A stretch of DNA of 32,545 nt from Oscillospiraceae bacterium (GTDB taxonomy: Bacteria; Bacillota; Clostridia; Oscillospirales; Oscillospiraceae): contig WQUY01000024.1 in assembly GCA_009781855.1 (NCBI GenBank), forward strand, positions 1-32,545, read 5' to 3'. The stretch's first letter is position 1, and each line of letters opens with the position of its first letter. Below, one piece after another: positions 10,891-31,461 of the stretch. A model generated the notes under the pieces. That model was not told where the DNA came from and searched no databases. It saw nothing but the letters and a program-made list of their open reading frames with translations. The position numbers and the translations under genes are program-made.

Positions 10891-10922
10891 GCAATCATGA
10901 AAAAATTGGAGAGAGAATAAAC

Positions 10923-12233: not shown

Positions 12234-12313
12234 CACAACGAAAAGAACCCCTTAATCGGGTTGATATAGATAACAAAATTTTAACAAAAGCATTTAACAA
12301 AGGAGAGGCTGAT

Positions 12314-15300: not shown

Positions 15301-17791
15301 TAACCTTGCATTCAACCCCAAGGGCGGTGTACTAAACAACCCGGCAGCGGATGCGAACCGCGTCGTTCCATATTTGGAGTTGCCGTTACTCAACTTCCCG
15401 GGCGACCCAAGCCGTACAAACTGGCATTTCGTAGAATGGAACAGAAATGAAAACGGCGCAGGCGCGACATTTGGATCAACCATTCCGGTTGGTGCATCCG
15501 GCACAGTATGGGCCCAGTGGGAAGGCGAAGTAAGCTTTAACACAAATGGCGGCAGCACACATGGCGCAATATTTGTACCTGAAGATGCCAACTTTGGCAC
15601 TTTGCCGACAGCGACACGCGATGGATATGAGTTCCTGCATTGGGAACTGCCAAATGGCGATGAAGCCACGGCGGCAACACTGATGACAATGGGTGATGTC
15701 GAATTGACAGCCATATTCAGGGGACTCGTAACCGTAACGTACGTTCACGCGGCGGCAGGAGCCGGTCCGACAGACCCACCGGCATTGCCAAACCCTGCAA
15801 CCAGCAACCACTCGACAGGAACCAACGTAACCGTGGCGGCAAACTTAGGAAATGTAGCGATCACAACCGGAACGAACCAAGGCATATGGACATTTACAGG
15901 TTGGACAGCATCTGGCGGCATCACAGGCCTGCAGGCGGGCGGCAGTAACTTTGCAATGCCGACAAGCAGTGTAACCTTGACAGCCACATGGCGTTTCGAC
16001 CCTGCAGTGACGTATGTTCACGCAGCAGCAGGAGCAGGTCCGGACAATCCTCCGGCATTGCCAAACCCTGCAACCAGTAACCATCAGGCAGGAGCGACAG
16101 TCAATGTAGCGGCAAATCTTGCAAATGTAAACGTCACAGATGCAAACAATGTTGTTACCGGCATATGGACATTTACAGGCTGGACAGCATCCGGTGGCAT
16201 CACAGGCCTGCAGGCGGGCGGCAGCACTTTTGGAATGCCGACAAGCAGCGTGACCTTGACAGCCACATGGACATTTGAAGAACCGGAGCATACCGTAACA
16301 TTCTTGTACGGCGCGACAACAGCAACAGTAACCAATATGCCGTTAAACAGAGATGTACCGGCCGGAAATACGATCGTATCAGAAGGCCCCGTTACAAATC
16401 CTGTCGCGACAGGCTATACATTCTTGGGCTGGGAGCAAACGATCCCGGATCCGGCGACAGCAGGTGTAATCGCATCTGTAGATGTGAAAGAGATCACCGT
16501 AACCGAAGATAAGAAATTTACCGCACAGTGGAATTTGAATCAAGGCGGCAACGGCGGTAATGGTGGAAACGGCGGCAATGGAAACAGCGGCGGCAACGGT
16601 GGAAACGGCGGAAGTGGTGGAACTCCGGGAATAACCAAAATTCCGGACAGAGTATCCGTGAACGTTGGCGAAACGATGAACTGGACATTAAGGAATTTCC
16701 ACAATCCAACAGGCAATGCCGTTACAAACTTTACGATCATCGATATGCCAAGCGTAGGCTTGAACTTCCTATCGGGAACGATTCCTGCTTTCCGTAATGG
16801 TGCAGGCGTTACCTACGAAATCAGATACAGAGTGGCAGGCAGCGATGTGTTGCATACACACGCATCCAATGTAGATGCAAGCAGACCGTTCAACTTTACT
16901 TTATCAGAGACAGGTGATGTGCATTTTACAGCAATCGAACTTTTCTTTGGAAATGTTCCTGCGAACTTTGGACTTGGTAATGAAATCGTATTTACTTTCA
17001 GAGTGACAAACGAAGCAAACGGAAACACGTTGGTCAACAGATTGCTTGTCGGGTATGACAATATTCAACGAGAGGGCTATGGCTCTGTAAGTCTCGGAAT
17101 TTTCAGCCCGGATCATGAAGCATACCTGATCGGTTATGAAGATGGAACGATTAGACCAAACAGCGCGATCACCAGAGCAGAAGTAGCAACAATCATCTTT
17201 AGACTGCTGGATGACAACTACCGTGCACAAATCTGGAGCCAAAACAATCCGTTTAGTGATGTAGTAGCAACCAATTGGTTCAACAATGCAGTATCAACGT
17301 TGACCAATGGAGGCATCCTGAAAGGGTTCCCGGATGGAGCATTTAGAGGAAACCAAGCGATTACCAGAGCAGAATTTGTAGCAATGATGGCACGTTTCTT
17401 GGATGATACAAGTTACACAGGGCCGGATCGCTTCAATGACATAGAAGGACATTGGGCAAACGAATACATCAATGTAGTCGGGCAGCATGACTGGATCAGA
17501 GGCTTTGAGGGGGGCGGTTTCAGACCGAACCAGAACATCACCAGAGCAGAATCGGCAGCAATCATTAACCGTATGCTTGGCAGACGTCCGGAAGCGTTAT
17601 CAGACTTATTGCCGGGAATGGTGATTTGGCCTGATAACATGGACACAAATGCATGGTTCTATCTATACATCCAAGAAGCAACCAACTCGCATGACTATGA
17701 GATGAAAGCAGATGGAATCCATGAGAGCTGGACAGTGTTAAGAGATCCAAGAGATTGGACAGCATTAGAGAGGCCTGATTCCAGACCATAG
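12314..17791 (+). CDS. Large secreted InlB-repeat and SLH surface protein
   Basis: An 1825-residue exported protein. The ATG at 12314 is preferred because AGGAGAGG (12301-12308) precedes it and a signal peptide follows directly (MISMLVVFLMLFGIFAPAAA); an in-frame ATG at 12230 overlapping the sigma stop would add 28 residues. A Tyr/Glu-rich segment (about 50-85) is followed by many InlB-type (Listeria-Bacteroides) repeats, recognisable by G(H/Y).F.GW and the closing (L/F)YA.W. Two near-identical SHIRT-like units lie at about 1141-1226 and 1232-1319. After a Gly/Asn linker (about 1410-1436) comes a beta-sandwich-like domain (about 1437-1594), three SLH domains (about 1600-1763) and a 60-residue tail also found in the 2515-10347 protein (WPDN...AW(F/Y)YLYIQEATNSH). 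It is probably a wall-attached stalk or adhesin, cotranscribed with the tethered sigma factor. Its ligand is unknown. Confidence 0.92.
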   Translation: MNQNKRDKRPKAKKMISMLVVFLMLFGIFAPAAALTNDVDAEGSLYENQDVFVTGEYSYEYAYEYGNSEYEGYGYTYEPKQEEEAPVPTGDVSQGYITPMPAGIVRVDFDLAGGSWEASVGFPGHAYIGIDTPIADITSAMLGSAWEAPAGSGASFGGWSAPGGATAITEATTLTATWNVQVVFSPSIYLPGSPVNLMIPLNSSLEDNGITLPGAPADRPGHTFLGWFDQAYSGEIVVTPPGPGQRFTADTTATAVTVLFPRWTEAAPIEFSTMLVRLNITDGIQAGGVSAPERRAHYYFAIAEDGTIRSLAASAGSPYYLNRVDNGNPASPQLRAHNLMEGPQARHQGLDPNSLATSAQPNNIAWEEWFTLPNGQGWAPFRVPTAPNNATLNTLFDDWAVYDPVSGMYIVELYANWMHRVHFHENPRPTQPGSGAFYSYDQVSIRVADAGGNIANNAMMPISPSVHNGIDLLTLPPDPVVEGRTFLGWYTVPVLRVDGVDWINEQPQIPNPNGPGTIDHPFILNTVAPNAILIANGADPANPVPVAFNENSPINNSMIVFAAWEVHSVIEITFEANGGTFQNGDTSMVRVPNPISARLSWSEPEYRTIHRTPPIPSKPGHVFMGWFPTPNVTGHTINDGLLADMWLWHTQYTASATYYARWVPAVRVNLWHDAPAGVNDVDAGGPPGAFRYIAAGYTFRQQTQIMSRSTGVNGTANVFRDSNHIMTNMTPTVSGGTRAGFHRITDFDRHRGSNIAGISAGTATTSASTGIFTTERGSHGDLFHLDTIVSGPGPVDLYSAWASQITFNNNQMSFGGSVNTMSGNRWVTANASFADNRMQPFSVMRPNPNGAALVSVSGSYVFLSSANFNFVQSPNINPVGQVFVGWNFAADGSGEWFTENTNTSGNQTVFAIWSDGLVFDVGLAGDDVVWAEDRVRENLDVGQPVPNFPALGSSLAPTWPGNGFRGWNTQADGQGDWVNSSHTFIEPLTLYAMWSGNLAFNPKGGVLNNPAADANRVVPYLELPLLNFPGDPSRTNWHFVEWNRNENGAGATFGSTIPVGASGTVWAQWEGEVSFNTNGGSTHGAIFVPEDANFGTLPTATRDGYEFLHWELPNGDEATAATLMTMGDVELTAIFRGLVTVTYVHAAAGAGPTDPPALPNPATSNHSTGTNVTVAANLGNVAITTGTNQGIWTFTGWTASGGITGLQAGGSNFAMPTSSVTLTATWRFDPAVTYVHAAAGAGPDNPPALPNPATSNHQAGATVNVAANLANVNVTDANNVVTGIWTFTGWTASGGITGLQAGGSTFGMPTSSVTLTATWTFEEPEHTVTFLYGATTATVTNMPLNRDVPAGNTIVSEGPVTNPVATGYTFLGWEQTIPDPATAGVIASVDVKEITVTEDKKFTAQWNLNQGGNGGNGGNGGNGNSGGNGGNGGSGGTPGITKIPDRVSVNVGETMNWTLRNFHNPTGNAVTNFTIIDMPSVGLNFLSGTIPAFRNGAGVTYEIRYRVAGSDVLHTHASNVDASRPFNFTLSETGDVHFTAIELFFGNVPANFGLGNEIVFTFRVTNEANGNTLVNRLLVGYDNIQREGYGSVSLGIFSPDHEAYLIGYEDGTIRPNSAITRAEVATIIFRLLDDNYRAQIWSQNNPFSDVVATNWFNNAVSTLTNGGILKGFPDGAFRGNQAITRAEFVAMMARFLDDTSYTGPDRFNDIEGHWANEYINVVGQHDWIRGFEGGGFRPNQNITRAESAAIINRMLGRRPEALSDLLPGMVIWPDNMDTNAWFYLYIQEATNSHDYEMKADGIHESWTVLRDPRDWTALERPDSRP
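15734..16270 (+). repeat. Tandem duplication of a SHIRT-like domain
   Basis: Two copies, 15734-15991 and 16007-16270, lie 273 bases apart and are very similar at the DNA level. Both encode VTYVHAAAGAGP, PPALPNPATSNH, IWTFTGWTASGGITGLQAGG and MPTSSVTLTATW. The similarity is much higher than between the other repeats of this protein, so the duplication is recent or kept uniform by gene conversion. Confidence 0.8.
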
Positions 17792-18068: not shown

Positions 18069-18195
18069 ATGAACAAGAGGTGTATTGGAGCAAGAGAATG
18101 ACAACATGAATACAATTTAATCAAACGATACCCATTTCAAGAAGTAATAGAAGATTTAATCACACTAAATTAATTGTAAACTGGAGGAAAAATTG

Positions 18196-19929
18196 ATGAA
18201 AAAAACAAGACCGAATCGAGTGCTGGCATGTCTGTTGGCACTTTTTATGTTCTTAACGCTTGCACCGGCAGCAGCGCATGCAACGGTAGTGGGTCAGACG
18301 GACTTCGCGAGAAGCTTCATTTCGGCAATCGATCCGGGTGGAGAGTGGCTGCTTGTAGAAGTGGAGCGCCTACTGAACGCGAGGCAGAAAACAGTTGCGA
18401 CGATGCGTGAGGGAGACCTTGATTTCATCACGAGCATCGGACTTGCGGGCAGGGGGATTCACGGCCATATACCGCCTGCAATCGGACATCTTCGTAATCT
18501 TGAACATCTTTTTCTTTCAGGTAACAATCTGACAAACGGGCCATCCGGCCTACCGAACCAGCTTTTTTCACTTTCGAATCTTCGTAACATAGATTTATCA
18601 AACAATTTGTATACAGGCCCAATCGACAGCCGCTTTTCGCAGCTGCCGCTTGAAGTACTCAGGCTTTCAGGCAATGACCACACGGGCGGGATCCCTGTAG
18701 CGCTGACTCAAATTCCTACGCTGAGGATGCTTGACTTATCGGACAACCGTTTGACAGGTGGCGTCATTCCTGAGCTTGCAAACCTAAATAATTTAAGGTA
18801 CTTAGAACTTTCAAGAAACCCGCTTGGGGGCAGCATCCCTGCGGAGCTAACAACGATGACAAACCTTGAAGTGCTTGCGATCTGGAGCGCGGAGCTAACG
18901 GGAGAAATTCCTGCCACGATCGGGAACATGACAGCGCTTCAATACATAGATTTAGGCATCAACCGGCTTACAGGAGAGATTCCTGTAAGCATCGGAAACC
19001 TCATAAGACTCAGAGAACTAACGATCAGCTTCAACCGCATCACAGGCACAGTCCCTGACATATTTCAAAACATGAACCGGCTTGAAGAAGTGCATATCGA
19101 TGAAAACTATCTTCGGGGGCATATCCCGCAGAGTCTGTTTGACCGCTTCCTTGGCGGCACAGAAGTAACATTCTCATGGAACTACATGACAGGGCCAAAC
19201 GCCCTTGCAATTGAACAAGAACTTGGAATCCGTGTATCACACGGGAACTTTGTCGATGGCTCATCAGCTCAGCAGTTCAGGCTGACGACAATCAGAGATA
19301 TCCAGTACATCCGTGTAGCGCAAGGCGAGTTTGTTGACCTTTGGCGGTATCTTGAAAACGTCGTGGCAACAGGGTCTACGCTTGACCCAAAGCCGATGCG
19401 TCCATACAATGAATACGTCATTTTCGTCACAAACCCCGCTGATGCAAGCCGGGTAGAAATCCATACAAACGGCGGACTGTTTGTCAGACTTTCAGAAGAA
19501 GTCTTATGGGAGAACGCCATATCCATCACGATCAAAATAAGGAACAACTACGATTCGGAATTTTCAAGGGTGACCTTTGGAATCGGCACGGGACCTGGCC
19601 CTACAGGCCCTCCGGGCGTCGGTGGCGGCGGTGGTATCGTCGAAGTAACTCCACCGGATGTACCGCTTGTCGGTATCATCCACCATATGCCGTATCTTGT
19701 TGGCTACCCTGATGGAGAGATCAAAGGGGACAGAAACATCAGCAGGGAAGAAGCGGCTGTTATCCTGTTCAGAATCAGGGAGGGCATGGTACCTCGTGAA
19801 CCTGCAAGCGAAGCACCTTTCTTTGACGTATCCGCGACAAGGTGGTCATCGGGCTACATCGAGTATGCGAAAGTAAATGGCCTGCTTCAGGTTACCCGGA
19901 CGGAAGCTTCAGGCCGGCGAACCAGATGA
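18196..19929 (+). CDS. Plant-type LRR surface protein with SLH domain, truncated by frameshift
   Basis: The 577-codon frame starts at ATG 18196, just after an in-frame TTG, with GGAGGA at 18183-18188. Residues 1-28 are a signal peptide (VLACLLALFMFLTLAPAAAHA). Residues about 82-322 hold about ten 24-residue leucine-rich repeats of the plant-specific type (LTGEIP.(T/S)IGN...L). An Ig-like or beta-rich region (about 355-475) and a Pro/Gly linker follow. SLH1 (YLVGYPDGEIKGDRNISREE) is intact; SLH2 starts (FFDVSATRWSSGYIEYAKVN) but the frame breaks after GLLQ and ends at TGA 19929. Adding one G next to 19890-19891 restores GYPDGSFRP and joins the frame running to 20378, giving about 727 residues with three SLH domains. 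As read, this product lacks most of its wall anchor. LRRs are protein-binding surfaces; the partner is unknown, perhaps the RHS protein downstream. Confidence 0.82.
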   Translation: MKKTRPNRVLACLLALFMFLTLAPAAAHATVVGQTDFARSFISAIDPGGEWLLVEVERLLNARQKTVATMREGDLDFITSIGLAGRGIHGHIPPAIGHLRNLEHLFLSGNNLTNGPSGLPNQLFSLSNLRNIDLSNNLYTGPIDSRFSQLPLEVLRLSGNDHTGGIPVALTQIPTLRMLDLSDNRLTGGVIPELANLNNLRYLELSRNPLGGSIPAELTTMTNLEVLAIWSAELTGEIPATIGNMTALQYIDLGINRLTGEIPVSIGNLIRLRELTISFNRITGTVPDIFQNMNRLEEVHIDENYLRGHIPQSLFDRFLGGTEVTFSWNYMTGPNALAIEQELGIRVSHGNFVDGSSAQQFRLTTIRDIQYIRVAQGEFVDLWRYLENVVATGSTLDPKPMRPYNEYVIFVTNPADASRVEIHTNGGLFVRLSEEVLWENAISITIKIRNNYDSEFSRVTFGIGTGPGPTGPPGVGGGGGIVEVTPPDVPLVGIIHHMPYLVGYPDGEIKGDRNISREEAAVILFRIREGMVPREPASEAPFFDVSATRWSSGYIEYAKVNGLLQVTRTEASGRRTR

Positions 19930-20378
19930 GCAGAAACGAGTTTGCCGTGCTGCTTGTCAATCTCATGAATATGCAGACAGTAGCGGAAAGGCCATACGGC
20001 TTTCCGCTAACAGACGTACCCGAAAACTGGGCGGCACCGTATGTATACGCCGTGTTTGAAGCAGGATTCATCAGGGGATTCCCTGACGGGACATTCAGAG
20101 GCGAGCGCTTTGTGACAAGGGCGGAGGCTGCAAGCATGCTGAATGCTGCGCTTGACAGAAGCCCCGTAGCTTCAGACTGGGCGGAGATCACAGAGATACC
20201 GTTCACAGACCTGCGTAGAGGTTACTGGGCGTTTTATGAACTTCTTGAAGCGTCGATCGAACACTGGCATATGCCGCAGGGGGGCATTGATGCCCCGGGG
20301 TATACACAGAGTCCGGCGTATGAAGAGGACGAAGAAGACCCGGAAGACGACGAAGCGACAGAAAGTGATGGGAGGTAA
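19926..20378 (+). CDS. C-terminal SLH portion of the frameshifted LRR/SLH protein
   Basis: This frame carries the missing half of SLH2 (GYPDGSFRPANQMSRNEF, coded from about 19890) and all of SLH3 (DVPENWAAPYVYAVFEAGFI, then RGFPDGTFRGERFVTRAEAA). It continues into a diverged version of the post-SLH tail (FTDLRRGYWAFYELLEASIE, HW) and an acidic C-terminus. The ATG at 19926 overlaps the stop of the preceding frame (ATGA), so re-initiation is conceivable, but it lacks a good Shine-Dalgarno site and the homology begins before it; without a signal peptide the separate product could not be exported. It is best read as the 3' part of one gene, 18196-20378, interrupted by a one-base deletion or a sequence error. 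The open reading continues upstream to 19842 without homology. Confidence 0.65.
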   Translation: MSRNEFAVLLVNLMNMQTVAERPYGFPLTDVPENWAAPYVYAVFEAGFIRGFPDGTFRGERFVTRAEAASMLNAALDRSPVASDWAEITEIPFTDLRRGYWAFYELLEASIEHWHMPQGGIDAPGYTQSPAYEEDEEDPEDDEATESDGR

Positions 20379-20384
20379 GGATTG

Positions 20385-23300
20385 ATGAAGAGTAATAGAA
20401 GTAAGATGATGAGAAAACTAATCGCACTGGTTCTGACACTTGGCATGGTGGTGTCCGCGGTTGTTCCGCAGACCTTGACGGCACATGCCGCCAGGATCGA
20501 TCTGTCGATCATGGACGTTAATGTGCATGAAGAGCGGCTTGAGATAAGGTTTTGGCTTGAATACGCGCAGTACATTAACATCGCTGTATTTTACGTAGAC
20601 GGGTTTGACGAGATAGAGAACAGACCCATCAGAGGTGACCGCATCGGGTACATCATAAAAGACTATTTCGCGAACGGCTCAACAACGCTGCAGCCTATGC
20701 CATACAATATATGTCCGGCAGGGGAGCCACTACACCACCTCGCAGGGATGTATATCCCACCGGAACTAAGGGATATGGAGTACAGGAGGTTTACCGGAAC
20801 GCTTCCTGTCCCTTTGATGAATCCGTGGGATCGCCCCGGTGGCCCCATTATGCTTCGTGAGACTCTGCTTCCTGATGAAGAGGAAGAGGAAGCCTTGGAA
20901 GAAGAGCCTTACATCCCTGAAGAACTTGAAGAGCCGGAAGAGCCGGAAAATTACCCGGCTGATGAAGAAAACGGGGAAACAAACGAAACAGGTGAAAACG
21001 GCATAGATAATGGCGAGATAGAAAACGGTAATGGCACGGAAAGCACAGACAATGATGCATCCGGCATATATGAATATGAAGAAGCAGGAGAATACACAGT
21101 TTCCCAAAGCACGACAGGCCTTTTAGGCTTAGGAACAGCAGGAACGAGTCCATTCTTAGCGGATATTTTCGTGAGCGCGGGAGACGAAGATGGCACTGGC
21201 GCGGGAAGCGCGAACGGTTACGGAGATGGCGCGCCTGAAAACGGCACTGACCCCGGAATAGGTTCGGGCAATCCTGAAAACGGCGAGGAGCCGGCAGACG
21301 AGAACGGAAACGAAGAATACGAAAACGGCACAAATGGATACGGCACAGGAAACGAAACAGGTGAGCCGGACAAAGAAGACGAAAACGGACTTGATGAAGT
21401 CAAAGAAGAAGAGGAAGAAGAAGAGCTTCCTGAGCGTTTAGAGCGTCCGGAATATGACTTTTCAAACGTTGTAACAAACCAGGTGAGAGGCTTTAGCGCG
21501 AGAACAGTTGGCAGAGAAGAACTGATGGAGCGTTTTTCTCATAGAGCGTTTGGCATACAGCCTTTTGCTGCGGGCGCATGGGACAGGGACGATATGGGTC
21601 TTCCCATACTTCCCCCTACGCTCATAGAGCCTGACTTTGAGCATGAAGATGAGGGCTGGACGACACTTTTGTGGGACGGAAGCTACGATAGAAACGCGGG
21701 AACAGGGCTTGAGCCTGACTGGTACCCTGTGCTGACACGAATGGATCAAAACTGGAACAACATCCTTATTGTCATCGAGCCGATCGGTTTTCCGTGGAAG
21801 AATGAACGCCCAGAGTGTGTTGTAATAAACAACGTATACCATCGCGATGCCGGTGCAAACTGGGAGTGGACATCCAAGTTCCCATATGAAGCAGGGATAT
21901 TCTTTCTTGACGGCAGCACATGGCTCCTTGCGCCTATGGGCGAGCTTCCGCGCTGCGTGCTTCGGTGGCTGATGCTGTATAGAAACGGGCCTGTGACCCT
22001 TGAAGAGCTGATGCACAGGATCCTTGAAGGAGACCCGATCAACGTTGTAACGGGGTCATTCACGTTCAGCTATACAGACCTGAAGCTTCACGGCGAGTGG
22101 CCGCTTATTTGGGAAAGATTCCATAACTCACTTGACATGACAAATACCGGCCTTGGCCAAGGCTTTTCACATACGTATGACTATAGGCTGCTTGAAGAAC
22201 GCGGCATCGTATACATCAGAACGCCTTACGGTGAGCTTGTAACCTTTTTTAGAGTGTTTGACGAAGCGACGCAAAGGGACATCTACAGGCCGCTTCGGGG
22301 TGGAGATTTCACGCTTCATAGCGATGACAGAAACACCTACGAGATGACGTTTAAGGACGGCTCCGTGTTCACGTTTGTGGGCGGGCTTTTAACAAATGTA
22401 AGGACGCTCGGCGGCGACAGCATCGCGCAGCTGACCTATGAGGGGAACCGGCTAGCTCGTGTCTCAAACAGGACAGGGCATTTTGACATCACATGGACAG
22501 GAGATCATATCACAGCCATCACAGACAGCGCAAACAGAACCATCCGTTACACGTACGCGGGAGATAACCTCGTATCGTTTGAAAACGCGGATGGTGACAT
22601 CCTTTCCTATACGTACGACGGGAATGGCTTCATTGCTACGCTCACGGACTTTGATGGGAACTTGTTCCTTGAAAACACGTTTGACGAGCGCGGTAGGGTA
22701 ACCATGCAGCAGATGCATACACCCGGCGGCATAGCGGTGATGACGATTCATTACGACGACTCAGCGCTTACGGGAGATAACGTCACCCTTGCGTGCAGGG
22801 GTGTGAATACCGTAACGATGTTTACGGGCGAAGTCAGAAGATACTATTACGATCAGGCGCTTCGCATCATCGACATCATTGAGGGCCGCGGCGACCGCAC
22901 GAACACATGGGCGGACAACTACAGGGCAAACTCAAGATATCAGACCGGCGAACATGGCGTGCACTACACGAGCTTCGCGCAGAGCGGCAAGCCGACTGTA
23001 GCCGAGATGCAGGATGGCGCGGTCATCAGGGTCGAGCATACAGACTGCGGAAACAGGATTGCAAGGATTACTTACCACGACAATACATACGAAAGATTCA
23101 CATACGATGGGGCGAACATTGCCTCGTTCAGAGACAGAAACGGACACATCACAAACTTTACATACATCAACGGGCTGATCGCGACGATCACAGACCCGAT
23201 GGGCGGCGTGACAAGCTTTACGCATGATGCTTTAGGGCGGCGCACAAGCGTGACAGACCCGATGGGCGGCATCACGCGCTTTGAGCATAACGCCGCGGGC

Positions 23301-26300
23301 ATGGTAACAAAGGTAACAGGGCCACTTGGCGATGTGACGACATTTGGATACTCGGATGCGGGCAAGCTTCTAACGATCACAAATCATGCCGGCGATACCA
23401 TGGAATTTGAATATACCGGGAACGGATTCATCACAAGCAGCACGGACTTTAGAGGCAACGCCGAGATCACGGAGTATACAGGCCTGAACTTTGTCACGAG
23501 CGTAACGGACAGAGAGGGGAACGTCACGACGTTTACGTATACGGTGGATGGACAGATCGCAACGATCACGGACTTTAGAGGCGGGATTACGCGCTTTGCA
23601 TATAACGACAAAGGGCAGCTCATCTCGATGACGGACGCTGCCGGAAATACAACGAGCTATGCGTATGACCCAATCGGAAGACTCATCTCCATCACCGACC
23701 CCATGGGATATGTGGAAAGTTTCACGTATGACGTCATGGGCAGAAGACAGACCGTAACGGACAGAAACGGCAACACCACAAGATTTTTGTATGACCTTGA
23801 CGGTAGAATGGTCAGGGAGATTCGCGCGGAGGGAACGGACGCTGAAGCCGTGACCATTTTCGGCTATGACCCTGTCGGAAACCTGATCTCTGTCACAGAC
23901 GCGAACGGAAACATCACAACGAACGCGTTTGACAGGGCGAACAGGCTCATATCAACAACAGACGCTGAGGGCAGGGTAACGGCGAATACATATGACCTTG
24001 CGGGACGCCTTGCGACCATCACGGACGGAGAGGGCGGCATCACAACATTTGGGCGTGACCTTGCAGGGAACATCATAAGAGAAATTGACCCGCTTTTGAA
24101 TGTCACACATTTTGAATTTGACATCATGAGCAGGCTTACGGCACACGTGATGCCGGAGGGCGGCAGAACAGCTTTCGCGTATGACCCGAACGGGAATGTG
24201 TTGACAATAACGGATCCTGTGGGCGCAGTGACGGCATTTACATACGACAAGCTGAACCGGGTAGTTTCGGTAACAGATCCGCTCCTAAACGTCACAAGCC
24301 ATACCTACCTTGGAACGTTTGGCATCAGCGAGACGCTTTTCCCTGATGGGTACAGAGAAACATTCGCGTTCAACGCGCTTGGGCTTATGAGCAGCCATAC
24401 TAACCGTGGCGGCGGCGTGACGACATTCACATATGACAGCAGGGGACAGCTTGCACAGACGGTGGACGCGATGGGTTATGTAACGCAGCAGACGTATGAC
24501 CCGGCGAGGAATCTTGCTACTATAACGAGGGATGGCGTTTTAATGCTGACCAACATACGGGATGCGCAAAACAGGGTCGTAGAAACCGTTGACCCGATGG
24601 GAACAGTCCTCCTTGAACTTGACCCTGTCGGAAACCTGCTGTCAAGGACGGACAGAAACGGGAACACCACAAGCTTTGAATATGACAAAACAAACCTGCT
24701 TGTTCGGGCGATCGACCCGCTCGACTATGAGACGGCTTTCGCTTACGACAGGGCATCAAGGCAGGTGCAAATCGTGGACGCGGGAGGCCTCATAACAAAT
24801 ATCGTCCATGACCGTGCAGGAAATGTCGTTGAAGTGAATGAGTACGGAGACGGGATTACGTCAAGGGAAACATTCCAATTCGACAGAGACAGACGGCCTG
24901 TGCTTCACACGGACAGAAATGGGAATCTTCTTGAGTTCACATATGACCTTGCCGGAAGACTGATTGGCACAGAGACGCTTTACGTGGAAGCAAGGCTTGT
25001 TGTAAAGGAAGATTTCATTTATGACCTGAATGGAAACATCATCGAATATGTTGACCCAAGACGGGTATCAAGCTTCTTTACACATAACTTTGCCGGGCAT
25101 GTCCTTTCGCATACAAACCAGATGAGACATACCGAGTACTATACGTACTGCCCGAACTTCAACCTCACAAGCGTGCAGGACAGATCCAGAAACGTCACAA
25201 GCTACCGCTTTGACGCGCTTAACCGCTTGATAGAAGAACTGAAACCGGAGGGCGAACGGATTCGCTTCGCTTACGACGCGTTTCACAATGTCATCCGGGT
25301 TTACCAGAGGCAAGCGGACGGTGAGGGAATCACAAGATTTGAAAGTGGCCCGATGGGTAACCCCATACGTGAGATCGCTCAGCTTGGCGAAATTACAGAA
25401 TTTCAAACAGATGGTGAGGGCAACATCATAGAGGTGCGTGATGCTGACGGCAATGTGAACACGTTCGTCTTTGACGCGAGACACATGCTGACTGAAATCC
25501 GAAATGCCGGCATGGAGCCTGCTTTCCTCGCATATGATGCGATGAGAAACCTCATCCATATCGATGAAGAGATTGGGGAAACCAGCTTCACGTTTGACAT
25601 GCGAAACCGCTTGACGCAGACAACGGATCACAATGGACATACGGTTTTGTATGAATATGACCATAACAACAACAGGACGAGGATGGTTTACCCGAGCGGA
25701 GAAGAAGCGCTCTTTGAGTTTGACCATATGAACAGGCTTACCGCGCTGACATTTGGTGGAGAGACGAAGACGTACCAGTACAGCCCAAAAGGGCAGATCA
25801 TAAAGGAGCTTTTCCCGTCAGGCCTGAGTATTGAATATGGCTACAACAATGCCGGATACCTCACGGACACAATGGAAGTGGCGGGAGGCCTGATCAGAAG
25901 GCAGATGACATTCACATACAGGGAAAACGGGCTACTCTCAAGCAGGACGCAGGAAGGCATTGATGCAGAGCGCAGGGAAGAAGTCGTAATGCACACCTAT
26001 GACCGCTCGGGCAGACTCGTGAGAACGACGGTGTTCATAGAGGCAACGGGAAGCATTGAAACGAGAAACTATGCATATGATATTGCCGGAAACCTGATTA
26101 CAGAAACGAGAAACGGCGAGCAAATCTCCTATGTTTACAATGCCAGAAACCAGATGGTACTGAAAACCGCGGGCAGTGAAGTGACGCGTTTCGAATACGA
26201 CAGAAGAGGCAACCTCGTAAGGCAGACATCAAGCGCCGGAACGAAAACATTTGAATTCGACTCTGCAAACAGGCTTGTCTTTGGTGAAAACGAAACAGGC

Positions 26301-27779
26301 GAAACAAGCACATATGTATACAATGCGATCGGCGCCAGAGTATTTAACGAGCAGGTGAGAGACAACTTCAACGCAGGACATCAGAACGGCCCGCATTTTA
26401 TAGGCAGCTGGGAGACAAGCACCACCCTTGACAGGATACTGAGGGACGAGCGAAACACATGGCAGAGAATCTGGGAGACGAATGTAGCAGGCACTGTCGT
26501 TCAAAACGACAGAGAGACAGTCACAAAACATTACCTGCCTGACTATACAAGCTTCGCGCTGCGTGATATATTTATTTATGAAGATGGCAGCTTCGTGCAG
26601 AGCTTTGTTTACGATGGCATGAGGCTGAGGCCTGTTGCTCTGATTCTTGACTACGCTTACGAAACACAGCGTACAGGAACAAGCCCGGGAGAGAACCCCG
26701 GCTCTGACATCGCAAGAAACGTCACAACGAAGATATGGTACCATGGCGAGCCGCTGATTTTCAGCAACCTCTTTGGTACGGACAGTGATGGCGAGATCAG
26801 ATTCCATATGATCTACGATGACTGGGGGCTTGCGCAGATTGAAACAAGGCTTGACATGAACTTCCATGGGCTTGATAACATCAACAATTTTACAGGATAC
26901 ACGTTCGATCAAGTGCTTGGTATATATTATGCAATCAATAGGTTCTATGATGCAAACCTCAGGAGGTTCATCTCGGAGGATCCGATTCGCGATGGGCAGA
27001 ATTGGATGGTGTATACAGCGAACAATCCGATAACATACATCGACCCACTCGGACTTTCACCATCAGTCGCACAAGCGGCGGCGATGGCAGAGCATGTTTA
27101 TAGAGATATTCCGCTAAGTGATCCGCATGATCCAGACCGCAATCGTGCCCAGCGAACAGTAGAGGGCTGGCGTTTGATTGATATACATTCGGAAAGTGCA
27201 ACGCAGCACATCGGGATATATATCAGAGACGGCGACTATTGGAGAAGACCTGTGGAGTTTGCTGTTGTATTCAGAGGAACTCCTGTATTCGATGGTCCGA
27301 CATGGGTAGAAAATATGAGGGCGTATTTCACAGATACATCTCATGATCTGACCGATGCGATTGAGTTTGCGATATATTTTACGAATAAGGTGTGTGCTAA
27401 AGTAACGTTTGTAGGGCATTCAAAAGGTGGCGGAGAAGCGATTGCCGCAGCTGCTGCAACAAATGGACATGCAATTACATTCAACGCGGCGAATTTCAAT
27501 TTTGAGGGACATGAATTAACAGCAGGAAATAGTATAATACGGAATTATTACGTTGAAGGAGATTTTCTTTATGGGCTAATCCGAGATGCAAGCATTGGCA
27601 CTACGATATGGCTGCCTACGCAGCATTGGATGGTTAATCCAAACTACGTGCTTCCGCCAGCCAATCCGGGACTGCTGATTCCTGGGCTCATAAAGCAACC
27701 TATTCGTGTGCCGGATCCGGTTCGAAATCACCAAATAAGCGCAGTTAGAAGGGCAGTGGAGGCGAAATATGGTAGGTAA
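20385..27779 (+). CDS. Secreted RHS/YD-repeat protein with C-terminal lipase-like toxin domain
   Basis: A 2464-residue WapA-like protein. The ATG at 20385 follows GGAGGT (20371-20376), which overlaps the previous stop; an in-frame TTG lies just before it. Residues 1-35 are a signal peptide. About 160-360 is acidic low-complexity sequence. A DUF6531-type RHS entry domain (GDPINVVTGSFTFSYTDLKL) is at about 548-625, and tens of YD repeats (such as ITDPMGGVTSFTHDALGR) span about 686-1986. The RHS core motif (GYTFDQVLGIYYAINRFYD ... YIDPLGL) ends at about 2224. The last 240 residues resemble class 3 lipases: VVFRGT at 2294-2299, GHSKG with Ser2346, EGDF with Asp2393 and QHW with His2414 as a possible triad. 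In known RHS proteins the shell encloses and releases a toxic C-terminus; a membrane-lipid hydrolase is inferred. No SLH or sorting signal is visible. It overlaps the next gene by 11 bases. Confidence 0.92.
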   Translation: MKSNRSKMMRKLIALVLTLGMVVSAVVPQTLTAHAARIDLSIMDVNVHEERLEIRFWLEYAQYINIAVFYVDGFDEIENRPIRGDRIGYIIKDYFANGSTTLQPMPYNICPAGEPLHHLAGMYIPPELRDMEYRRFTGTLPVPLMNPWDRPGGPIMLRETLLPDEEEEEALEEEPYIPEELEEPEEPENYPADEENGETNETGENGIDNGEIENGNGTESTDNDASGIYEYEEAGEYTVSQSTTGLLGLGTAGTSPFLADIFVSAGDEDGTGAGSANGYGDGAPENGTDPGIGSGNPENGEEPADENGNEEYENGTNGYGTGNETGEPDKEDENGLDEVKEEEEEEELPERLERPEYDFSNVVTNQVRGFSARTVGREELMERFSHRAFGIQPFAAGAWDRDDMGLPILPPTLIEPDFEHEDEGWTTLLWDGSYDRNAGTGLEPDWYPVLTRMDQNWNNILIVIEPIGFPWKNERPECVVINNVYHRDAGANWEWTSKFPYEAGIFFLDGSTWLLAPMGELPRCVLRWLMLYRNGPVTLEELMHRILEGDPINVVTGSFTFSYTDLKLHGEWPLIWERFHNSLDMTNTGLGQGFSHTYDYRLLEERGIVYIRTPYGELVTFFRVFDEATQRDIYRPLRGGDFTLHSDDRNTYEMTFKDGSVFTFVGGLLTNVRTLGGDSIAQLTYEGNRLARVSNRTGHFDITWTGDHITAITDSANRTIRYTYAGDNLVSFENADGDILSYTYDGNGFIATLTDFDGNLFLENTFDERGRVTMQQMHTPGGIAVMTIHYDDSALTGDNVTLACRGVNTVTMFTGEVRRYYYDQALRIIDIIEGRGDRTNTWADNYRANSRYQTGEHGVHYTSFAQSGKPTVAEMQDGAVIRVEHTDCGNRIARITYHDNTYERFTYDGANIASFRDRNGHITNFTYINGLIATITDPMGGVTSFTHDALGRRTSVTDPMGGITRFEHNAAGMVTKVTGPLGDVTTFGYSDAGKLLTITNHAGDTMEFEYTGNGFITSSTDFRGNAEITEYTGLNFVTSVTDREGNVTTFTYTVDGQIATITDFRGGITRFAYNDKGQLISMTDAAGNTTSYAYDPIGRLISITDPMGYVESFTYDVMGRRQTVTDRNGNTTRFLYDLDGRMVREIRAEGTDAEAVTIFGYDPVGNLISVTDANGNITTNAFDRANRLISTTDAEGRVTANTYDLAGRLATITDGEGGITTFGRDLAGNIIREIDPLLNVTHFEFDIMSRLTAHVMPEGGRTAFAYDPNGNVLTITDPVGAVTAFTYDKLNRVVSVTDPLLNVTSHTYLGTFGISETLFPDGYRETFAFNALGLMSSHTNRGGGVTTFTYDSRGQLAQTVDAMGYVTQQTYDPARNLATITRDGVLMLTNIRDAQNRVVETVDPMGTVLLELDPVGNLLSRTDRNGNTTSFEYDKTNLLVRAIDPLDYETAFAYDRASRQVQIVDAGGLITNIVHDRAGNVVEVNEYGDGITSRETFQFDRDRRPVLHTDRNGNLLEFTYDLAGRLIGTETLYVEARLVVKEDFIYDLNGNIIEYVDPRRVSSFFTHNFAGHVLSHTNQMRHTEYYTYCPNFNLTSVQDRSRNVTSYRFDALNRLIEELKPEGERIRFAYDAFHNVIRVYQRQADGEGITRFESGPMGNPIREIAQLGEITEFQTDGEGNIIEVRDADGNVNTFVFDARHMLTEIRNAGMEPAFLAYDAMRNLIHIDEEIGETSFTFDMRNRLTQTTDHNGHTVLYEYDHNNNRTRMVYPSGEEALFEFDHMNRLTALTFGGETKTYQYSPKGQIIKELFPSGLSIEYGYNNAGYLTDTMEVAGGLIRRQMTFTYRENGLLSSRTQEGIDAERREEVVMHTYDRSGRLVRTTVFIEATGSIETRNYAYDIAGNLITETRNGEQISYVYNARNQMVLKTAGSEVTRFEYDRRGNLVRQTSSAGTKTFEFDSANRLVFGENETGETSTYVYNAIGARVFNEQVRDNFNAGHQNGPHFIGSWETSTTLDRILRDERNTWQRIWETNVAGTVVQNDRETVTKHYLPDYTSFALRDIFIYEDGSFVQSFVYDGMRLRPVALILDYAYETQRTGTSPGENPGSDIARNVTTKIWYHGEPLIFSNLFGTDSDGEIRFHMIYDDWGLAQIETRLDMNFHGLDNINNFTGYTFDQVLGIYYAINRFYDANLRRFISEDPIRDGQNWMVYTANNPITYIDPLGLSPSVAQAAAMAEHVYRDIPLSDPHDPDRNRAQRTVEGWRLIDIHSESATQHIGIYIRDGDYWRRPVEFAVVFRGTPVFDGPTWVENMRAYFTDTSHDLTDAIEFAIYFTNKVCAKVTFVGHSKGGGEAIAAAAATNGHAITFNAANFNFEGHELTAGNSIIRNYYVEGDFLYGLIRDASIGTTIWLPTQHWMVNPNYVLPPANPGLLIPGLIKQPIRVPDPVRNHQISAVRRAVEAKYGR

Positions 27780-28383
27780 AACGACGAAGGGCATTTTGCA
27801 AATGGCACTCGCTACTATTGCAGGCGCTTTGGCGTGTACGTTGTTCTTCCTGTTTGTCGTTTCAGGCGCGTTCGCGGTCTTGATGCCTAATCCATCGAGA
27901 CCGCAAATAACGTATGGAGAATTTCCGATTCGAGTGATATTTGAACTTGATGGTGAAATACAAACAATAGAGGATACTGTAATCGCAGAATTCACTGGAT
28001 TTGAAAGTCTTGGCACAGCCGGAAGATATCGTGTGTGGACATCACGCCTTAAAAGTGGAAATGAGCGACTGGTTTTGTTACGGGTTGAAAATGAAGGATT
28101 GGTAACGGAGATTTCTGTATTTAGCGGACTACCGGATTCTTACATGGGAGACTTTACGTGGAGAAGCAGATGGGAACATGAAAGCTCAATAAGAAACGTC
28201 AGGTTTTTTGGATACATACAATGGGAAAATGACGATTTGATATCTGGAATCACTATTTCGCCAGAGGAAGTGTGGGAGAAATATAACTTACGAGTCATTG
28301 AAGTTCAACATAGCCCCTCAATAGAAAATACGTTTGGATGGCGGCGCTTCATACCTCGTTGGTTTCTGTCGTCAGGGTCGTGA
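27769..28383 (+). CDS. Single-pass membrane protein, candidate immunity protein A
   Basis: 204 residues. The ATG at 27769 lies inside the 3' end of the RHS gene, with GGAGG at 27758-27762, which suggests translational coupling. A short basic N-terminus (MVGKTTKG) leads into a transmembrane helix at about 10-37 (ALATIAGALACTLFFLFVVS); the remainder, starting NPSRPQITYGEFP, is predicted to lie outside. I recognise no named family. Its place directly behind the toxin-like C-terminus, its membrane anchor and the paralogue that follows all fit an immunity protein guarding the outer membrane face against the RHS lipase, analogous to the envelope-located immunity proteins of type VI lipase effectors. 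That role is inference from context. The base composition is more AT-rich than the RHS core. Confidence 0.78.
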   Translation: MVGKTTKGILQMALATIAGALACTLFFLFVVSGAFAVLMPNPSRPQITYGEFPIRVIFELDGEIQTIEDTVIAEFTGFESLGTAGRYRVWTSRLKSGNERLVLLRVENEGLVTEISVFSGLPDSYMGDFTWRSRWEHESSIRNVRFFGYIQWENDDLISGITISPEEVWEKYNLRVIEVQHSPSIENTFGWRRFIPRWFLSSGS

Positions 28384-28418
28384 GGATTGGCACGTGAAAA
28401 GCATCGTGGAGGTATACG

Positions 28419-29027
28419 GTGAGTAAAACGACGAAGGGCATTTTGCAAATGGCACTAGCTACTGTTGCAGGCGCTTTGGCGTGTACATTGTTCTTCCTGT
28501 TTATCATTTCGGGTGCGTTCGCTGTTTTGGCCCCTAATCCGTCGAGACCGCAAATAACGTATGGGGAATTTCCTTTCCGTTTGACATTTGAATTAGATGG
28601 TGAACTGCAAGTTATTGAGGACACTATAGTATGTGAATTTGTTGGGTTTGAAAGTCGTGGAACAGCCGGAAGATACCGTGTTTGGGAAGCACACCTTAAA
28701 AGTGGAGCTGAAAGAATTACACTTTTAAATTTGCGTCATTTAGAAGAAACAAACGAACTTGGCCAATTGATGCTGGAATTGTTTTTTGATTGGGGCAATG
28801 CAAACTATTATATGGGCGATACATCTCGCTGGCCAAGAGGAGGGCAGAACTTTTACGAGATAATGTTTTTGTTTCAATCTCCTGATGGTAGAATTGGAGG
28901 TAGTGCTTATGAAGCTGATGTGGCATGGGAAAAGTATGGAATAAGACTTATAGATTGGGAAGTAAGCTCACCCATAGAAAATACGTTCAGACATTGGATT
29001 TTACGGTTTCTACCGGCAAGTCCGTGA
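28419..29027 (+). CDS. Single-pass membrane protein, candidate immunity protein B (paralogue)
   Basis: 202 residues from a GTG start, chosen for GGAGGT at 28408-28413 and alignment with the preceding gene. The first half (KTTKGILQMALAT, the transmembrane helix, NPSRPQITYGEFP, FELDGE, GTAGRYRVW) is about 80 percent identical to the upstream paralogue by eye. The second half is strongly diverged, keeping only YMGD, V.WEKY and IENTF. A conserved anchor with a changed C-terminal half is what one expects if the outer part binds different lipase variants. It lies 35 bases after the first copy in the same orientation, so a tandem duplication is likely. The immunity role is inferred; a general lipase chaperone is an alternative. 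Confidence 0.76.
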   Translation: MSKTTKGILQMALATVAGALACTLFFLFIISGAFAVLAPNPSRPQITYGEFPFRLTFELDGELQVIEDTIVCEFVGFESRGTAGRYRVWEAHLKSGAERITLLNLRHLEETNELGQLMLELFFDWGNANYYMGDTSRWPRGGQNFYEIMFLFQSPDGRIGGSAYEADVAWEKYGIRLIDWEVSSPIENTFRHWILRFLPASP

Positions 29028-29045
29028 TATTGTACCTGATACATT

Positions 29046-29588
29046 ATGAGAGGTAATTATTTGTTAGACAAATTGTTGGATGGCAGATTCATATTTAACT
29101 TTATAATTTCATTTATAATCTATGCGGTAGTTAACGGGATCGGACTTTTTGTAGGTCTTCTATTGGGCATAGATGGAGCGCCAGCTGGTGCAACCAGAAT
29201 ATGGGCTCTTATATGGTTTGTTTGCGTACCGGTAGTTTTATATTTTGCCTTGGGTTCAACATTAAAACTGCTGGATAGTCATCGTTGGAACTATTTATCA
29301 GTCAGCAGCAGCTTTATCTTTTCGATCATTATAATATCAAATGATATTATATCGTATGGCAATGTAATTGAACCATTTGACGAGGACTGGGGATTTTTTG
29401 TAAATACTTCTTTTGGCTTATGGATTGTTCCGATTATTGATATGCTAGGAAGAAGCGGACTTTATATCATAGCGATTTTTCCGTCAGCGATTATGTGGCT
29501 CAGATTGACTGCAAAAGCTACGGGATTTGGCTCAAAAGTGCGTAGGTTGCTTAGGAAAATAAACACATTTTTTCCGGATGACTTATGA
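29046..29588 (+). CDS. Multi-pass integral membrane protein of unknown function
   Basis: 180 residues with about four hydrophobic helices (FIFNFIISFIIYAVVNGIGL; IWALIWFVCVPVVLYFALGS; FIFSIIIISNDIIS; LYIIAIFPSAIMWLRL) and a basic C-terminus (GSKVRRLLRKINTFF). The ATG at 29046 gives the longest frame but has no Shine-Dalgarno site; AGAGG at 29049-29053 points to TTG 29061 as the more likely start, giving MLDKLLDGRF. I do not recognise the family. It is AT-rich and follows the two candidate immunity genes by 18 bases, so it may belong to the same module, as a further immunity protein or an accessory membrane component. No clear terminator separates it from the next gene. Confidence 0.6.
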   Translation: MRGNYLLDKLLDGRFIFNFIISFIIYAVVNGIGLFVGLLLGIDGAPAGATRIWALIWFVCVPVVLYFALGSTLKLLDSHRWNYLSVSSSFIFSIIIISNDIISYGNVIEPFDEDWGFFVNTSFGLWIVPIIDMLGRSGLYIIAIFPSAIMWLRLTAKATGFGSKVRRLLRKINTFFPDDL

Positions 29589-29700
29589 AATCAGTGATTT
29601 TGCACCATATATTATGATAACATACGGAAGAATTTAAACCATATAAGCTTTTCAAAAGTAGTATCTAATGATTACAGAAAGATGTAGAGGGAGTAGAAAA

Positions 29701-31461
29701 ATGTTAAAAACCGTAAAACACGAAATGTCTTTGAATTCTGTAAAGCGCATCATCGCGCTGGTGATGCTGTTCATGCTCGTATTTTCAACAAGCGCAGCTG
29801 GTGTTGTCGCCATTGCCGAAGATGAAAACTATACCGACAACGAGCAGGTAGTAGTGGTGGATGAAGAATTCGGATATGATTATGACGAAGAAATCGGCGA
29901 GGAAGAAGTCAAAGAAGAAGTCCAGTTTGTTCTATCAGAACTTGGCGAGATATCCATTATGCCTTTGAATGCGATAAGAGTTTCCGGGAATGTAGGTATC
30001 GGCGGTGCGCCATGGAGACTGTACGAAAATGGGAGTTTGTATATAGATTCAGGAAGCATAACGTTTGAGAGCCTGAACCCGTTTCGTCCGTGGGATGATT
30101 ACACAACCTATGTAAACAAAATCACAATTACCGGTTCAATCACAGCAAGTTCATCAATAACTGGACTGTTCCGCAATTTAACAAATTTAGAAGCAATAAA
30201 TGGGTTGGATTACTTTGACACATACAATGTGACAAGTATGGGCGGCATGTTTCAAGAGGCATCAGGGCTGACATCTTTGGATTTATCAAGCTGGGATACA
30301 AGCAATGTAACAAGTATGATGTTGATGTTTGGCGGTGCATCGGGGCTGACGTCGTTGGATGTATCGGGTTGGGATACAAGTAGTGTAAGAAATATGGGTA
30401 TGATGTTCCACGGCATATCGCTGACATCGCTGGATTTGTCAAGTTGGGATACAAGCAATGTGGGAGCGATGAACAGTATGTTTACAGCGGCATCGGGGCT
30501 GACGTCGCTAGATTTATCAAGCTGGGATACAAGCAGTGTGACAAATATGAATGCTATGTTTCACCTAGCAACTGGGCTGGAATCGCTGGATTTATCGGGC
30601 TGGGATACAGGTAGTGTTACAAATACGGGCATGATGTTTCGAAGCGCAACTAGGCTGGAATCGCTAGATGTATCACACTTCGATACTCATAGTGTGACAA
30701 ATATGTGGTATATGTTTGAATATGCATCAAGTCTGACATCGCTAGATTTATCAAACTGGGATACAAGCAATGTAACGACTATGCGAGGTATGTTTGCAAA
30801 TGCATCAAGTCTGGAATCGTTGGATTTATCAGGTTGGGATACAAGCAACGTGAATACTATGTGGAATATGTTTTTGGGAACAACTGCCCTAAGAGAACTG
30901 AGTCTTGGTGCAAATTTCACTTTTGTAGAAGGTAACCTCGCACACCTACCCCCTGTTCTGAACAATGCGACTTATACAGGATTTTGGGTTCACACCGTAA
31001 GCGGCGAGACGCGCACATCAGCGCAGATTATGGCAAATAACTTTACGCCGGGTACTTGGATATGGCAACAACGCTCAGGCGCGACTACAACGACCCCGCC
31101 AACACAACAGCCCAATGGCGGCGGTGGTTATTCGAATGGGGATTTCACATGGCAACCACCTTTCAATGTGCCAACCCAAAATGCACCAACCCCAAATATT
31201 CCAAATGAAAATATGCCGAATGAAATGATCATAGACGACATAGAAGTGCCGCTTGCGGAGGAGCCGATTATAGAGGGCGCGATTGCGGAAATAAGCGAAG
31301 CAATCGAAATAGAAGAGACCATTGCGCCACCTTCCAACGTGCCGCAAACAGGAATAACGGACAACAGAGTGATTCTGATTGTCAGCCTTTTGATGTCGCT
31401 CACGATCGCAATTGTAACAGCGTCAACGATGCGCAGGCCTAGAGCAAAGGCGAACCGTTAA
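29701..31461 (+). CDS. BspA-type LRR surface protein with VPQTG sorting signal
   Basis: 586 residues. The ATG at 29701 is chosen because GAGGGAG (29687-29693) precedes it and a signal peptide follows (RIIALVMLFMLVFSTSAAGV); an in-frame ATG at 29668 would place that site inside the gene. An acidic stretch (about 42-75) follows. Nine 25-residue BspA-type (DUF285) repeats span about 169-399, with consensus SLDLS.WDTSNVT.M..MF. A Pro/Asn-rich stalk (about 460-545) leads to VPQTG (547-551), a hydrophobic helix and a basic tail (RRPRAKANR), the layout of a sortase substrate with V in place of L. It is therefore probably attached to peptidoglycan, unlike the SLH proteins here, or stays membrane-anchored. 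DUF285 repeats occur in adhesins of oral and gut bacteria; the ligand is unknown. A rho-independent terminator follows. Confidence 0.9.
   Translation: MLKTVKHEMSLNSVKRIIALVMLFMLVFSTSAAGVVAIAEDENYTDNEQVVVVDEEFGYDYDEEIGEEEVKEEVQFVLSELGEISIMPLNAIRVSGNVGIGGAPWRLYENGSLYIDSGSITFESLNPFRPWDDYTTYVNKITITGSITASSSITGLFRNLTNLEAINGLDYFDTYNVTSMGGMFQEASGLTSLDLSSWDTSNVTSMMLMFGGASGLTSLDVSGWDTSSVRNMGMMFHGISLTSLDLSSWDTSNVGAMNSMFTAASGLTSLDLSSWDTSSVTNMNAMFHLATGLESLDLSGWDTGSVTNTGMMFRSATRLESLDVSHFDTHSVTNMWYMFEYASSLTSLDLSNWDTSNVTTMRGMFANASSLESLDLSGWDTSNVNTMWNMFLGTTALRELSLGANFTFVEGNLAHLPPVLNNATYTGFWVHTVSGETRTSAQIMANNFTPGTWIWQQRSGATTTTPPTQQPNGGGGYSNGDFTWQPPFNVPTQNAPTPNIPNENMPNEMIIDDIEVPLAEEPIIEGAIAEISEAIEIEETIAPPSNVPQTGITDNRVILIVSLLMSLTIAIVTASTMRRPRAKANR
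30205..30897 (+). repeat. Nine BspA/DUF285 repeats
   Basis: Near-regular 72-78 base units coding for SLDLS.WDTSNVT.M..MF.. AS.L. The units are similar at the DNA level (for example GATTTATCAAGCTGGGATAC recurs), so copy-number change by recombination is likely. Confidence 0.8.

What the first reader, a model, noticed from the sequence alone, without database searches (positions are those of the whole stretch)
26883..29027. RHS protein with lipase-like C-terminus and duplicated membrane immunity candidates
The RHS core ends at YIDPLGL, after which 240 residues show RGT, GHSKG, EGD and QHW in the order of a class 3 lipase. The next gene overlaps the RHS stop by 11 bases and encodes an N-terminally anchored outer protein, followed by a paralogue with a conserved anchor and diverged C-terminal half. 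This fits a contact-dependent phospholipase toxin with extracytoplasmic immunity in a Gram-positive, and the immunity family appears undescribed to me.
Basis: partly seen in the sequence, partly recalled or inferred. Interest (0 to 1): 0.75.

Follow-up and report, generated by a model that had tools for sequence, protein, structure and literature searches.

The report
RHS phospholipase toxin with mosaic immunity
A bacterium carries a large secreted toxin-like protein that ends in a predicted lipid-cutting enzyme, followed by two membrane-anchored proteins of an apparently undescribed family that probably protect the producer and look patched together by recombination.

Summary
An RHS protein (20382-27779) ends in a ~240-residue lipase-like domain; the next gene overlaps its stop by 11 bases and a relative follows. 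A profile of 11 such domains matches the E. cloacae T6SS phospholipase Tle ('Tle6', 7UBZ) at E=3.2e-11. The small proteins form a family without a convincing Pfam, NCBIfam or PDB match, with a hydrophobic N-terminal segment in 34 of 35 and a confident beta-rich model (pLDDT 92). Of 8 uninterrupted lipase relatives found without using the small proteins, 5 have this family directly downstream, 2 an ankyrin protein, 1 neither. Conversely only 14 of 41 non-seed loci of the small family have the lipase nearby; most stand alone. New here: the two genes are mosaics. Their N-halves group together (100/99); their C-halves have different ancestry (p-AU 0.004), and gene 2, not the adjacent gene 1, tracks the lipase. 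Toxicity, lipid cleavage and protection are inferred; nothing was assayed, and the lipase fold was not modelled.

The parts
20382..27779 (+). RHS/WapA-like protein, 2465 aa, with hydrophobic N-terminal (Sec-like) stretch, DUF6531, RHS repeats and Rhs-associated core
   Evidence: ORF; PF05593, PF20148; TIGR03696 at residues 2145-2225; hydrophobic stretch at residues 9-34 and no LPxTG-like motif
27048..27776 (+). lipase-like C-terminal domain (243 residues as cut here)
   Evidence: PF11187 6.1e-5; profile of 11 relatives matches Tle 7UBZ at 3.2e-11
27420..27422 (+). predicted nucleophile Ser2347 (Ser2346 from ATG) in GHSKG
   Evidence: 11 of 11 in A5; aligned with Tle Ser341
27561..27563 (+). 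predicted catalytic acid Asp2394 in VEGD
   Evidence: D or E in 13 of 13; aligned with Tle Glu393
27729..27731 (+). predicted catalytic His2450 in the NH motif
   Evidence: 11 of 11 in A5, 13 of 13; outside the stretch aligned with Tle
27769..28383 (+). imm1, anchored outer protein; N-half 27769-28086, C-half 28087-28380 of separate ancestry from that of imm2
   Evidence: model of residues 43-204, pLDDT 92.1
28419..29027 (+). imm2, anchored outer protein; C-half from about 28734, nearest to the immunity protein of L016

Best explanation
An RHS/WapA-type protein is exported, its C-terminal domain is freed after the RHS core, and it hydrolyses membrane phospholipids of neighbouring cells with a Ser-Asp-His triad. 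The two downstream genes encode membrane-anchored outer proteins that bind and block incoming lipase at the producer's surface. Their anchor halves were kept alike by recombination between the tandem copies; their C-halves have different ancestry and are the likely specificity part. imm2 is the historical partner of this lipase; imm1, with a C-half like that of stand-alone genes, would guard against other lipase variants. Shown by sequence: architecture, relation to Tle, recurrent linkage, hydrophobic anchor, mosaic ancestry, confident beta-rich model of imm1. Inferred: export, cleavage, lipid substrate, binding, protection, and which copy neutralises which lipase.
For: Profile match to the phospholipase Tle at 3.2e-11 with nucleophile and acid aligned. 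Ser, acid and NH His conserved in 11 of 11. 5 of 8 uninterrupted lipase relatives found by lipase-only searches have the small family directly downstream and 2 of the other 3 an ankyrin-repeat protein, the immunity type of Tle6. Of loci found by the small family, 14 of 41 non-seed ones have the lipase or pieces of it upstream, although the lipase profile rings in only 9 of 398 phylum genomes at 1e-6. L022 holds three small genes, each preceded by the lipase or a remnant of its end. Distances of lipase and small protein correlate over 13 pairs, Mantel r 0.75, p 5e-5. Hydrophobic segment in 34 of 35. N-half: imm1+imm2 one clade 100/99; C-half: held together rejected, p-AU 0.004; imm2 in a starred pair 98/81 with L016 as its nearest row. 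Lipase of L016 is sister to that of the window, 100/100.
Against: 27 of 41 non-seed loci of the small family have no lipase nearby, and 16 genomes with the stand-alone loci plus that of L037 showed none (0 of 17, no positive control in that call). One lipase relative has neither partner (L055). The Mantel correlation is confounded by relatedness of the hosts. The His lies outside the stretch aligned with Tle, and the acid-to-His spacing runs from 30 to 56 in relatives. No lipase model, no fold comparison, no complex, no assay. imm1 is not in any starred set in the C-half tree. Synonymous sites do not show a recent conversion of the N-half (9 of 46 vs 12 of 35, p=0.20).
Confidence: 0.7

Rival explanations
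1. imm1, next to the toxin, is the cognate inhibitor; its C-half has simply evolved fast together with the lipase, and imm2 is the older or spare copy.
For: imm1 overlaps the toxin stop, the usual place of a cognate gene; its grouping in the C-half tree is not starred.
Against: imm1 C-half is 0.42-0.43 identical to L007/L010, against 0.31 to imm2 and 0.23 to L016; imm1+imm2 rejected in the C-half, p-AU 0.004, and in the soluble part, p-AU 0.017; the lipase of L016, whose small protein pairs with imm2, is the sister of the window lipase.
Confidence: 0.3
2. The enzyme is a hydrolase with another target (such as an ester in the cell envelope or host material), and the small proteins are partners or activators rather than inhibitors.
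For: Only distant relatives are biochemically known; the immunity protein Tli of Tle is needed for its activation as well as its inhibition (abstract). Lipase_3 and Mbeg1-like are broad families.
Against: Tle has phospholipase A1 and A2 activity; swapping of the partner for an ankyrin protein behind two relatives and stand-alone copies fit immunity better than a required partner.
Confidence: 0.15
3. The small proteins are general envelope proteins that sit behind the lipase by chance or hitchhiking.
For: 27 of 41 non-seed loci lack the lipase; several stand among housekeeping-like genes (read by eye).
Against: 5 of 8 lipase relatives from lipase-only searches carry the family directly downstream, in different genera, against a family found in 1 of 398 phylum genomes, the window itself.
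Confidence: 0.08

Closest known systems
Tle6/Tli of Enterobacter cloacae (PDB 7UBZ, 9CYS; PMC11470151, passages read)
   Same: Related lipase domain (3.2e-11); paper's triad Ser341-Glu393-His448; ankyrin-type partner behind two relatives of the window lipase
   Different: T6SS effector of a Gram-negative; partner is an ankyrin protein, here an unrelated-looking anchored family; cross-link activation by Tli not examined here
TslA/TilA of Staphylococcus aureus (PMC10730906, abstract and sections 6, 9, 12 read)
   Same: Bacillota phospholipase toxin with extracellular anchored immunity; tandem, recombining immunity genes
   Different: T7SS substrate with N-terminal lipase; TilA is a DUF576 lipoprotein, and DUF576 did not appear among the hits of the 35 small proteins at E<=0.1
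WapA/RHS toxins of Bacillus subtilis and Streptococcus suis (PMC12704120, passages read)
   Same: Sec-type signal, RHS repeats, variable C-terminus with adjacent immunity gene; two S. suis C-termini were toxic to E. coli only with a PelB signal
   Different: No lipase is mentioned in that paper's text (word search); the S. suis immunity proteins were not compared
Tox-ABhydrolase-3 (PMC3482391, passages and section 33 read)
   Same: Lipase-like hydrolase proposed as a polymorphic-toxin domain
   Different: Sequences not compared here, so identity with this domain is open

Membership tests
RHS/WapA polymorphic toxin | RHS repeats and Rhs-associated core before a C-terminal toxin region | tested here: met
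   PF05593, PF20148, TIGR03696 ending at residue 2225
RHS/WapA polymorphic toxin | C-terminus varies between otherwise like proteins | tested here: met
   Two other RHS loci in the same genome end differently (read by eye)
RHS/WapA polymorphic toxin | Sec signal peptide | tested here: inconclusive
   Hydrophobic stretch after basic residues at the N-terminus; no signal-peptide predictor was run
RHS/WapA polymorphic toxin | Inhibits neighbouring cells | not testable with these tools
   needs bench work
Tle6 phospholipases | Lipase domain homologous to Tle | tested here: met
   E=3.2e-11, profile positions 55-178; distant
Tle6 phospholipases | Ankyrin-repeat immunity protein encoded beside it ('invariably') | tested here: not met
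   imm1 and imm2 hit no ankyrin model; two relatives, L057 and L068, do have one
Tle6 phospholipases | Delivered by T6SS | not tested
   RHS host protein with Sec-like N-terminus; no search for secretion genes was made
Mbeg1-like PF11187 | Score above the curated cutoff | tested here: inconclusive
   23 bits on the isolated domain, 18.7 on the whole protein, cutoff 21.1; 4 of 11 relatives hit at E<=0.01
TslA/TilA | N-terminal lipase, C-terminal helical T7SS targeting domain | tested here: not met
   Lipase-like domain is C-terminal to an RHS protein
TslA/TilA | DUF576 lipoprotein immunity | tested here: not met
   No DUF576 among hits at E<=0.1 for 35 members; fold comparison not run
Immunity protein of a polymorphic toxin | Gene directly behind the toxin C-terminus, repeatedly | tested here: met
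   Window and 5 of 8 lipase relatives
Immunity protein of a polymorphic toxin | Binds and neutralises the toxin | not testable with these tools
   needs bench work

The most novel reading that the evidence does not exclude
One phospholipase toxin clade has recruited at least two unrelated outer-surface immunity proteins, ankyrin solenoids and a new anchored beta-rich family, and in the latter the specificity half is exchanged between tandem and stand-alone copies while the anchor half is homogenised, so that cells assemble protection against lipase variants by swapping half-genes.
Probability: 0.5. Interest if true: 0.65.

Novelty: new variant of a known kind. Interest (0 to 1): 0.55.

Why it matters
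It would add an apparently undescribed immunity family to those known for lipid-attacking toxins, tie RHS lipases of Bacillota to the T6SS Tle6 lipases, and offer a natural mosaic pair in which the specificity-determining half of an immunity protein can be tested directly.

Tried and rejected
QHW as the catalytic histidine was rejected: 5 of 11 relatives keep it, against 11 of 11 for the NH histidine. A plain tandem duplication of the small genes was rejected on C-half ancestry. A recent conversion of the N-half could not be shown from synonymous sites: among codons for identical residues 9 of 46 (residues 3-53) vs 12 of 35 (54-106) differ, p=0.20; the difference is in nonsynonymous codons, 5 of 51 vs 18 of 53, p=0.004. 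A single-protein search for imm1 in 200 genomes of its family found only the window; alignments were used afterwards. The family alignment in 398 phylum genomes again found only the window. Viral scans gave one contig, three times. A genus search around the genome of L019 reached 3 genomes, no match. The BIV_Env hit of the gene at 29046 is below cutoff and taken as chance. The acid-to-His spacing (55 in Tle by the paper's numbers, 56 here) is no argument, since it runs from 30 to 56 in relatives. One search printed a column labelled D171 that was one off; one search gives the right one (172).

Counting notes. Loci found by the small family: 31 (L034 dropped, being the contig of seed L004), 1, 12 places (2 window, 1 seed, 9 counted), 1: 41 counted. 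With lipase: 12 of 30 (L012-L017, L020-L022, L024, L026, L033; 8 with the lipase in one frame, 4 as pieces or cut by a contig end), 1 of 1, 0 of 9, 1 of 1 (L064, lipase in two pieces). L014's pieces lie 1.5 kb upstream. L035 and L036 end within the small gene; upstream sequence of L077, L080 and L082 is short or absent. Lipase relatives by lipase-only searches: counted if E<=1e-20 and in one uninterrupted frame from profile position 26 or before to 196 or beyond: L004, L055, L057, L065, L066, L067, L068, L071. L055 and L071 lack an RHS core in that frame. Left out: broken places L069/L072 and L070, and weaker matches L005, L006, L058-L063. L065, L066 and L071 are the lipases of L021, L015 and L013, which the small-family scan had also found.

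Fold comparison of the imm1 model never ran; the lipase structure job was never accepted.

Full report
Observation. The RHS ORF spans 20382-27779 (2465 aa from TTG), imm1 27769-28383 and imm2 28419-29027; the overlap is exactly 11 bases. The RHS core model ends at residue 2225. The remaining ~240 residues hit Mbeg1-like PF11187 at 6.1e-5 when cut out, and below the cutoff in the whole protein. The small proteins hit no Pfam or NCBIfam model. Among 35 aligned relatives the best Pfam E-value is 0.0091 (FtsH_ext, 4 members) and the best NCBIfam one 0.047, which I take as chance; their profile finds no PDB chain at E<=10.

The lipase. In the window's genome the domain was found once, and two other RHS loci end differently. 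Among 295 genomes of the order the window domain gave one strong relative, L004 in another family, 35% identical in the alignment; the gene behind it proved to be a relative of imm1 and imm2, which the single-protein search for imm1 (other genomes) had not shown. A profile of 11 domains (A5) matches the T6SS lipase Tle at 3.2e-11. Its paper gives the triad Ser341-Glu393-His448 and phospholipase A1 and A2 activity (passages). The alignment puts Ser341 on Ser2347 and Glu393 on Asp2394 (chain positions counted by hand); the His lies outside the aligned stretch. The acid is D or E in 13 of 13; the NH histidine is kept in 11 of 11 and the QHW histidine in 5 of 11. I therefore assign His2450. The fold was not modelled.

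The small family. Seeds were imm1, imm2 and the L004 gene. The genome scan gave 31 loci from Clostridia, Oscillospiraceae, Acetivibrio, Lachnoclostridium, Paenibacillus, Cohnella and MAGs labelled Dehalococcoidia; the viral scan 1; 394 genomes of the order 9 beyond window and seed; plasmids 1. It is rare: 1 of 398 phylum genomes, the window. A simple hydropathy scan shows an N-terminal hydrophobic segment in 34 of 35; 3 of 35 also match a loose lipobox pattern. The outer part of imm1 (residues 43-204) models with mean pLDDT 92.1 and pTM 0.80 as a beta-rich fold, except for a weak tail. What it resembles is unknown.

Linkage both ways. From the small family, 14 of 41 non-seed loci have the lipase or pieces of it upstream on the same strand. 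One more, L037, has an RHS protein with another hydrolase-like end, all hits below cutoff. From the lipase alone, 5 of 8 uninterrupted relatives carry the small gene directly downstream (L004, L065, L066, L067, L071), 2 an ankyrin-repeat protein (L057, L068) and 1 neither within the stored flank (L055). The genomes of the stand-alone loci, plus that of L037, showed no lipase: 0 of 17 (without a positive control in that call, and many are incomplete MAGs). So the lipase usually has this partner or an ankyrin one, but the partner often stands alone. Distances of lipase and partner correlate over 13 pairs (Mantel r 0.75, p 5e-5), which relatedness of the hosts could also give.

Mosaic genes. imm1 and imm2 share 35 of 41 residues in 1-42, 11 of 11 in 43-53, 35 of 53 in 54-106, but 28 of 90 from 107 on. 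In that last part imm1 is nearer to the stand-alone genes L007 (35 of 84) and L010 (34 of 79), and imm2 to L016 (36 of 80); 8 of the 33 other rows were compared in this way. With all 35 rows, residues 1-106 put imm1 and imm2 in one clade (100/99), while in the rest holding them together is rejected (p-AU 0.004), imm2 is in a starred pair (98/81) with L016 as nearest row, and imm1 is nearest L007, L008 and L010 without a starred set. For the soluble part as a whole p-AU is 0.017, and the printed tree has imm2 with L016 (94/74) and imm1 with L007/L008/L010 (97/91). The lipase of L016 is the sister of the window lipase (100/100). Recombination between small genes is the simplest reading, as published for EsaG and TipC (PMC9484751, abstract) and described for TilA-type genes (PMC10730906, discussion). 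That imm2 is the true partner is a prediction.

Known and new. Phospholipase toxins with outer immunity are known from TslA/TilA and Tle/Tli, and exported RHS toxins from WapA. New here are the combination, the apparently undescribed immunity family and its mosaic build. That it is undescribed rests and on word searches of a held library, which cannot find an unnamed sequence; a description elsewhere is possible.

Noticed in passing
18193-20378: A leucine-rich-repeat ORF ends within an SLH repeat while an overlapping ORF in another frame carries two SLH repeats: an interrupted surface protein or an assembly error.
   Followed up: partly
2515-10347 and 12230-17791: Two very large proteins with SLH repeats and Listeria-Bacteroides repeats.
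   Followed up: no
10857-12233: A 458-residue protein with sigma-70 regions 2 and 4 before the surface genes.
   Followed up: no
29046-29588: A small hydrophobic, apparently multi-spanning protein right after imm2 on the same strand, no convincing family; could be a further immunity gene.
   Followed up: no
29668-31461: DUF285/BspA-like repeat protein with a VPQTG-like motif before a C-terminal hydrophobic stretch (by eye).
   Followed up: no
L022 3507-6426: Three small-family genes in a row, each preceded by the lipase or a remnant of its C-terminal end, in a MAG labelled Dehalococcoidia.
   Followed up: partly
L064 3485-7453 (Monoglobus plasmid): After a recombinase gene, an array of toxin-like genes (Bacterial toxin 44, RHS-lipase in two pieces, amidase-like end) with the small family among them.
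   Followed up: partly
L075 (window's genome, contig C53): A recombinase followed by an RHS end with an HEMGH motif and a lipoprotein-like gene (by eye).
   Followed up: no
L019 4059-5033: Upstream of a stand-alone small-family gene lie a colicin-DNase/WHH nuclease and a SUKH immunity gene.
   Followed up: partly
L046 and L047 (wider: L083, L084): Longer members (305 and 311 residues) with extra C-terminal sequence, behind a like membrane protein in two genera.
   Followed up: no
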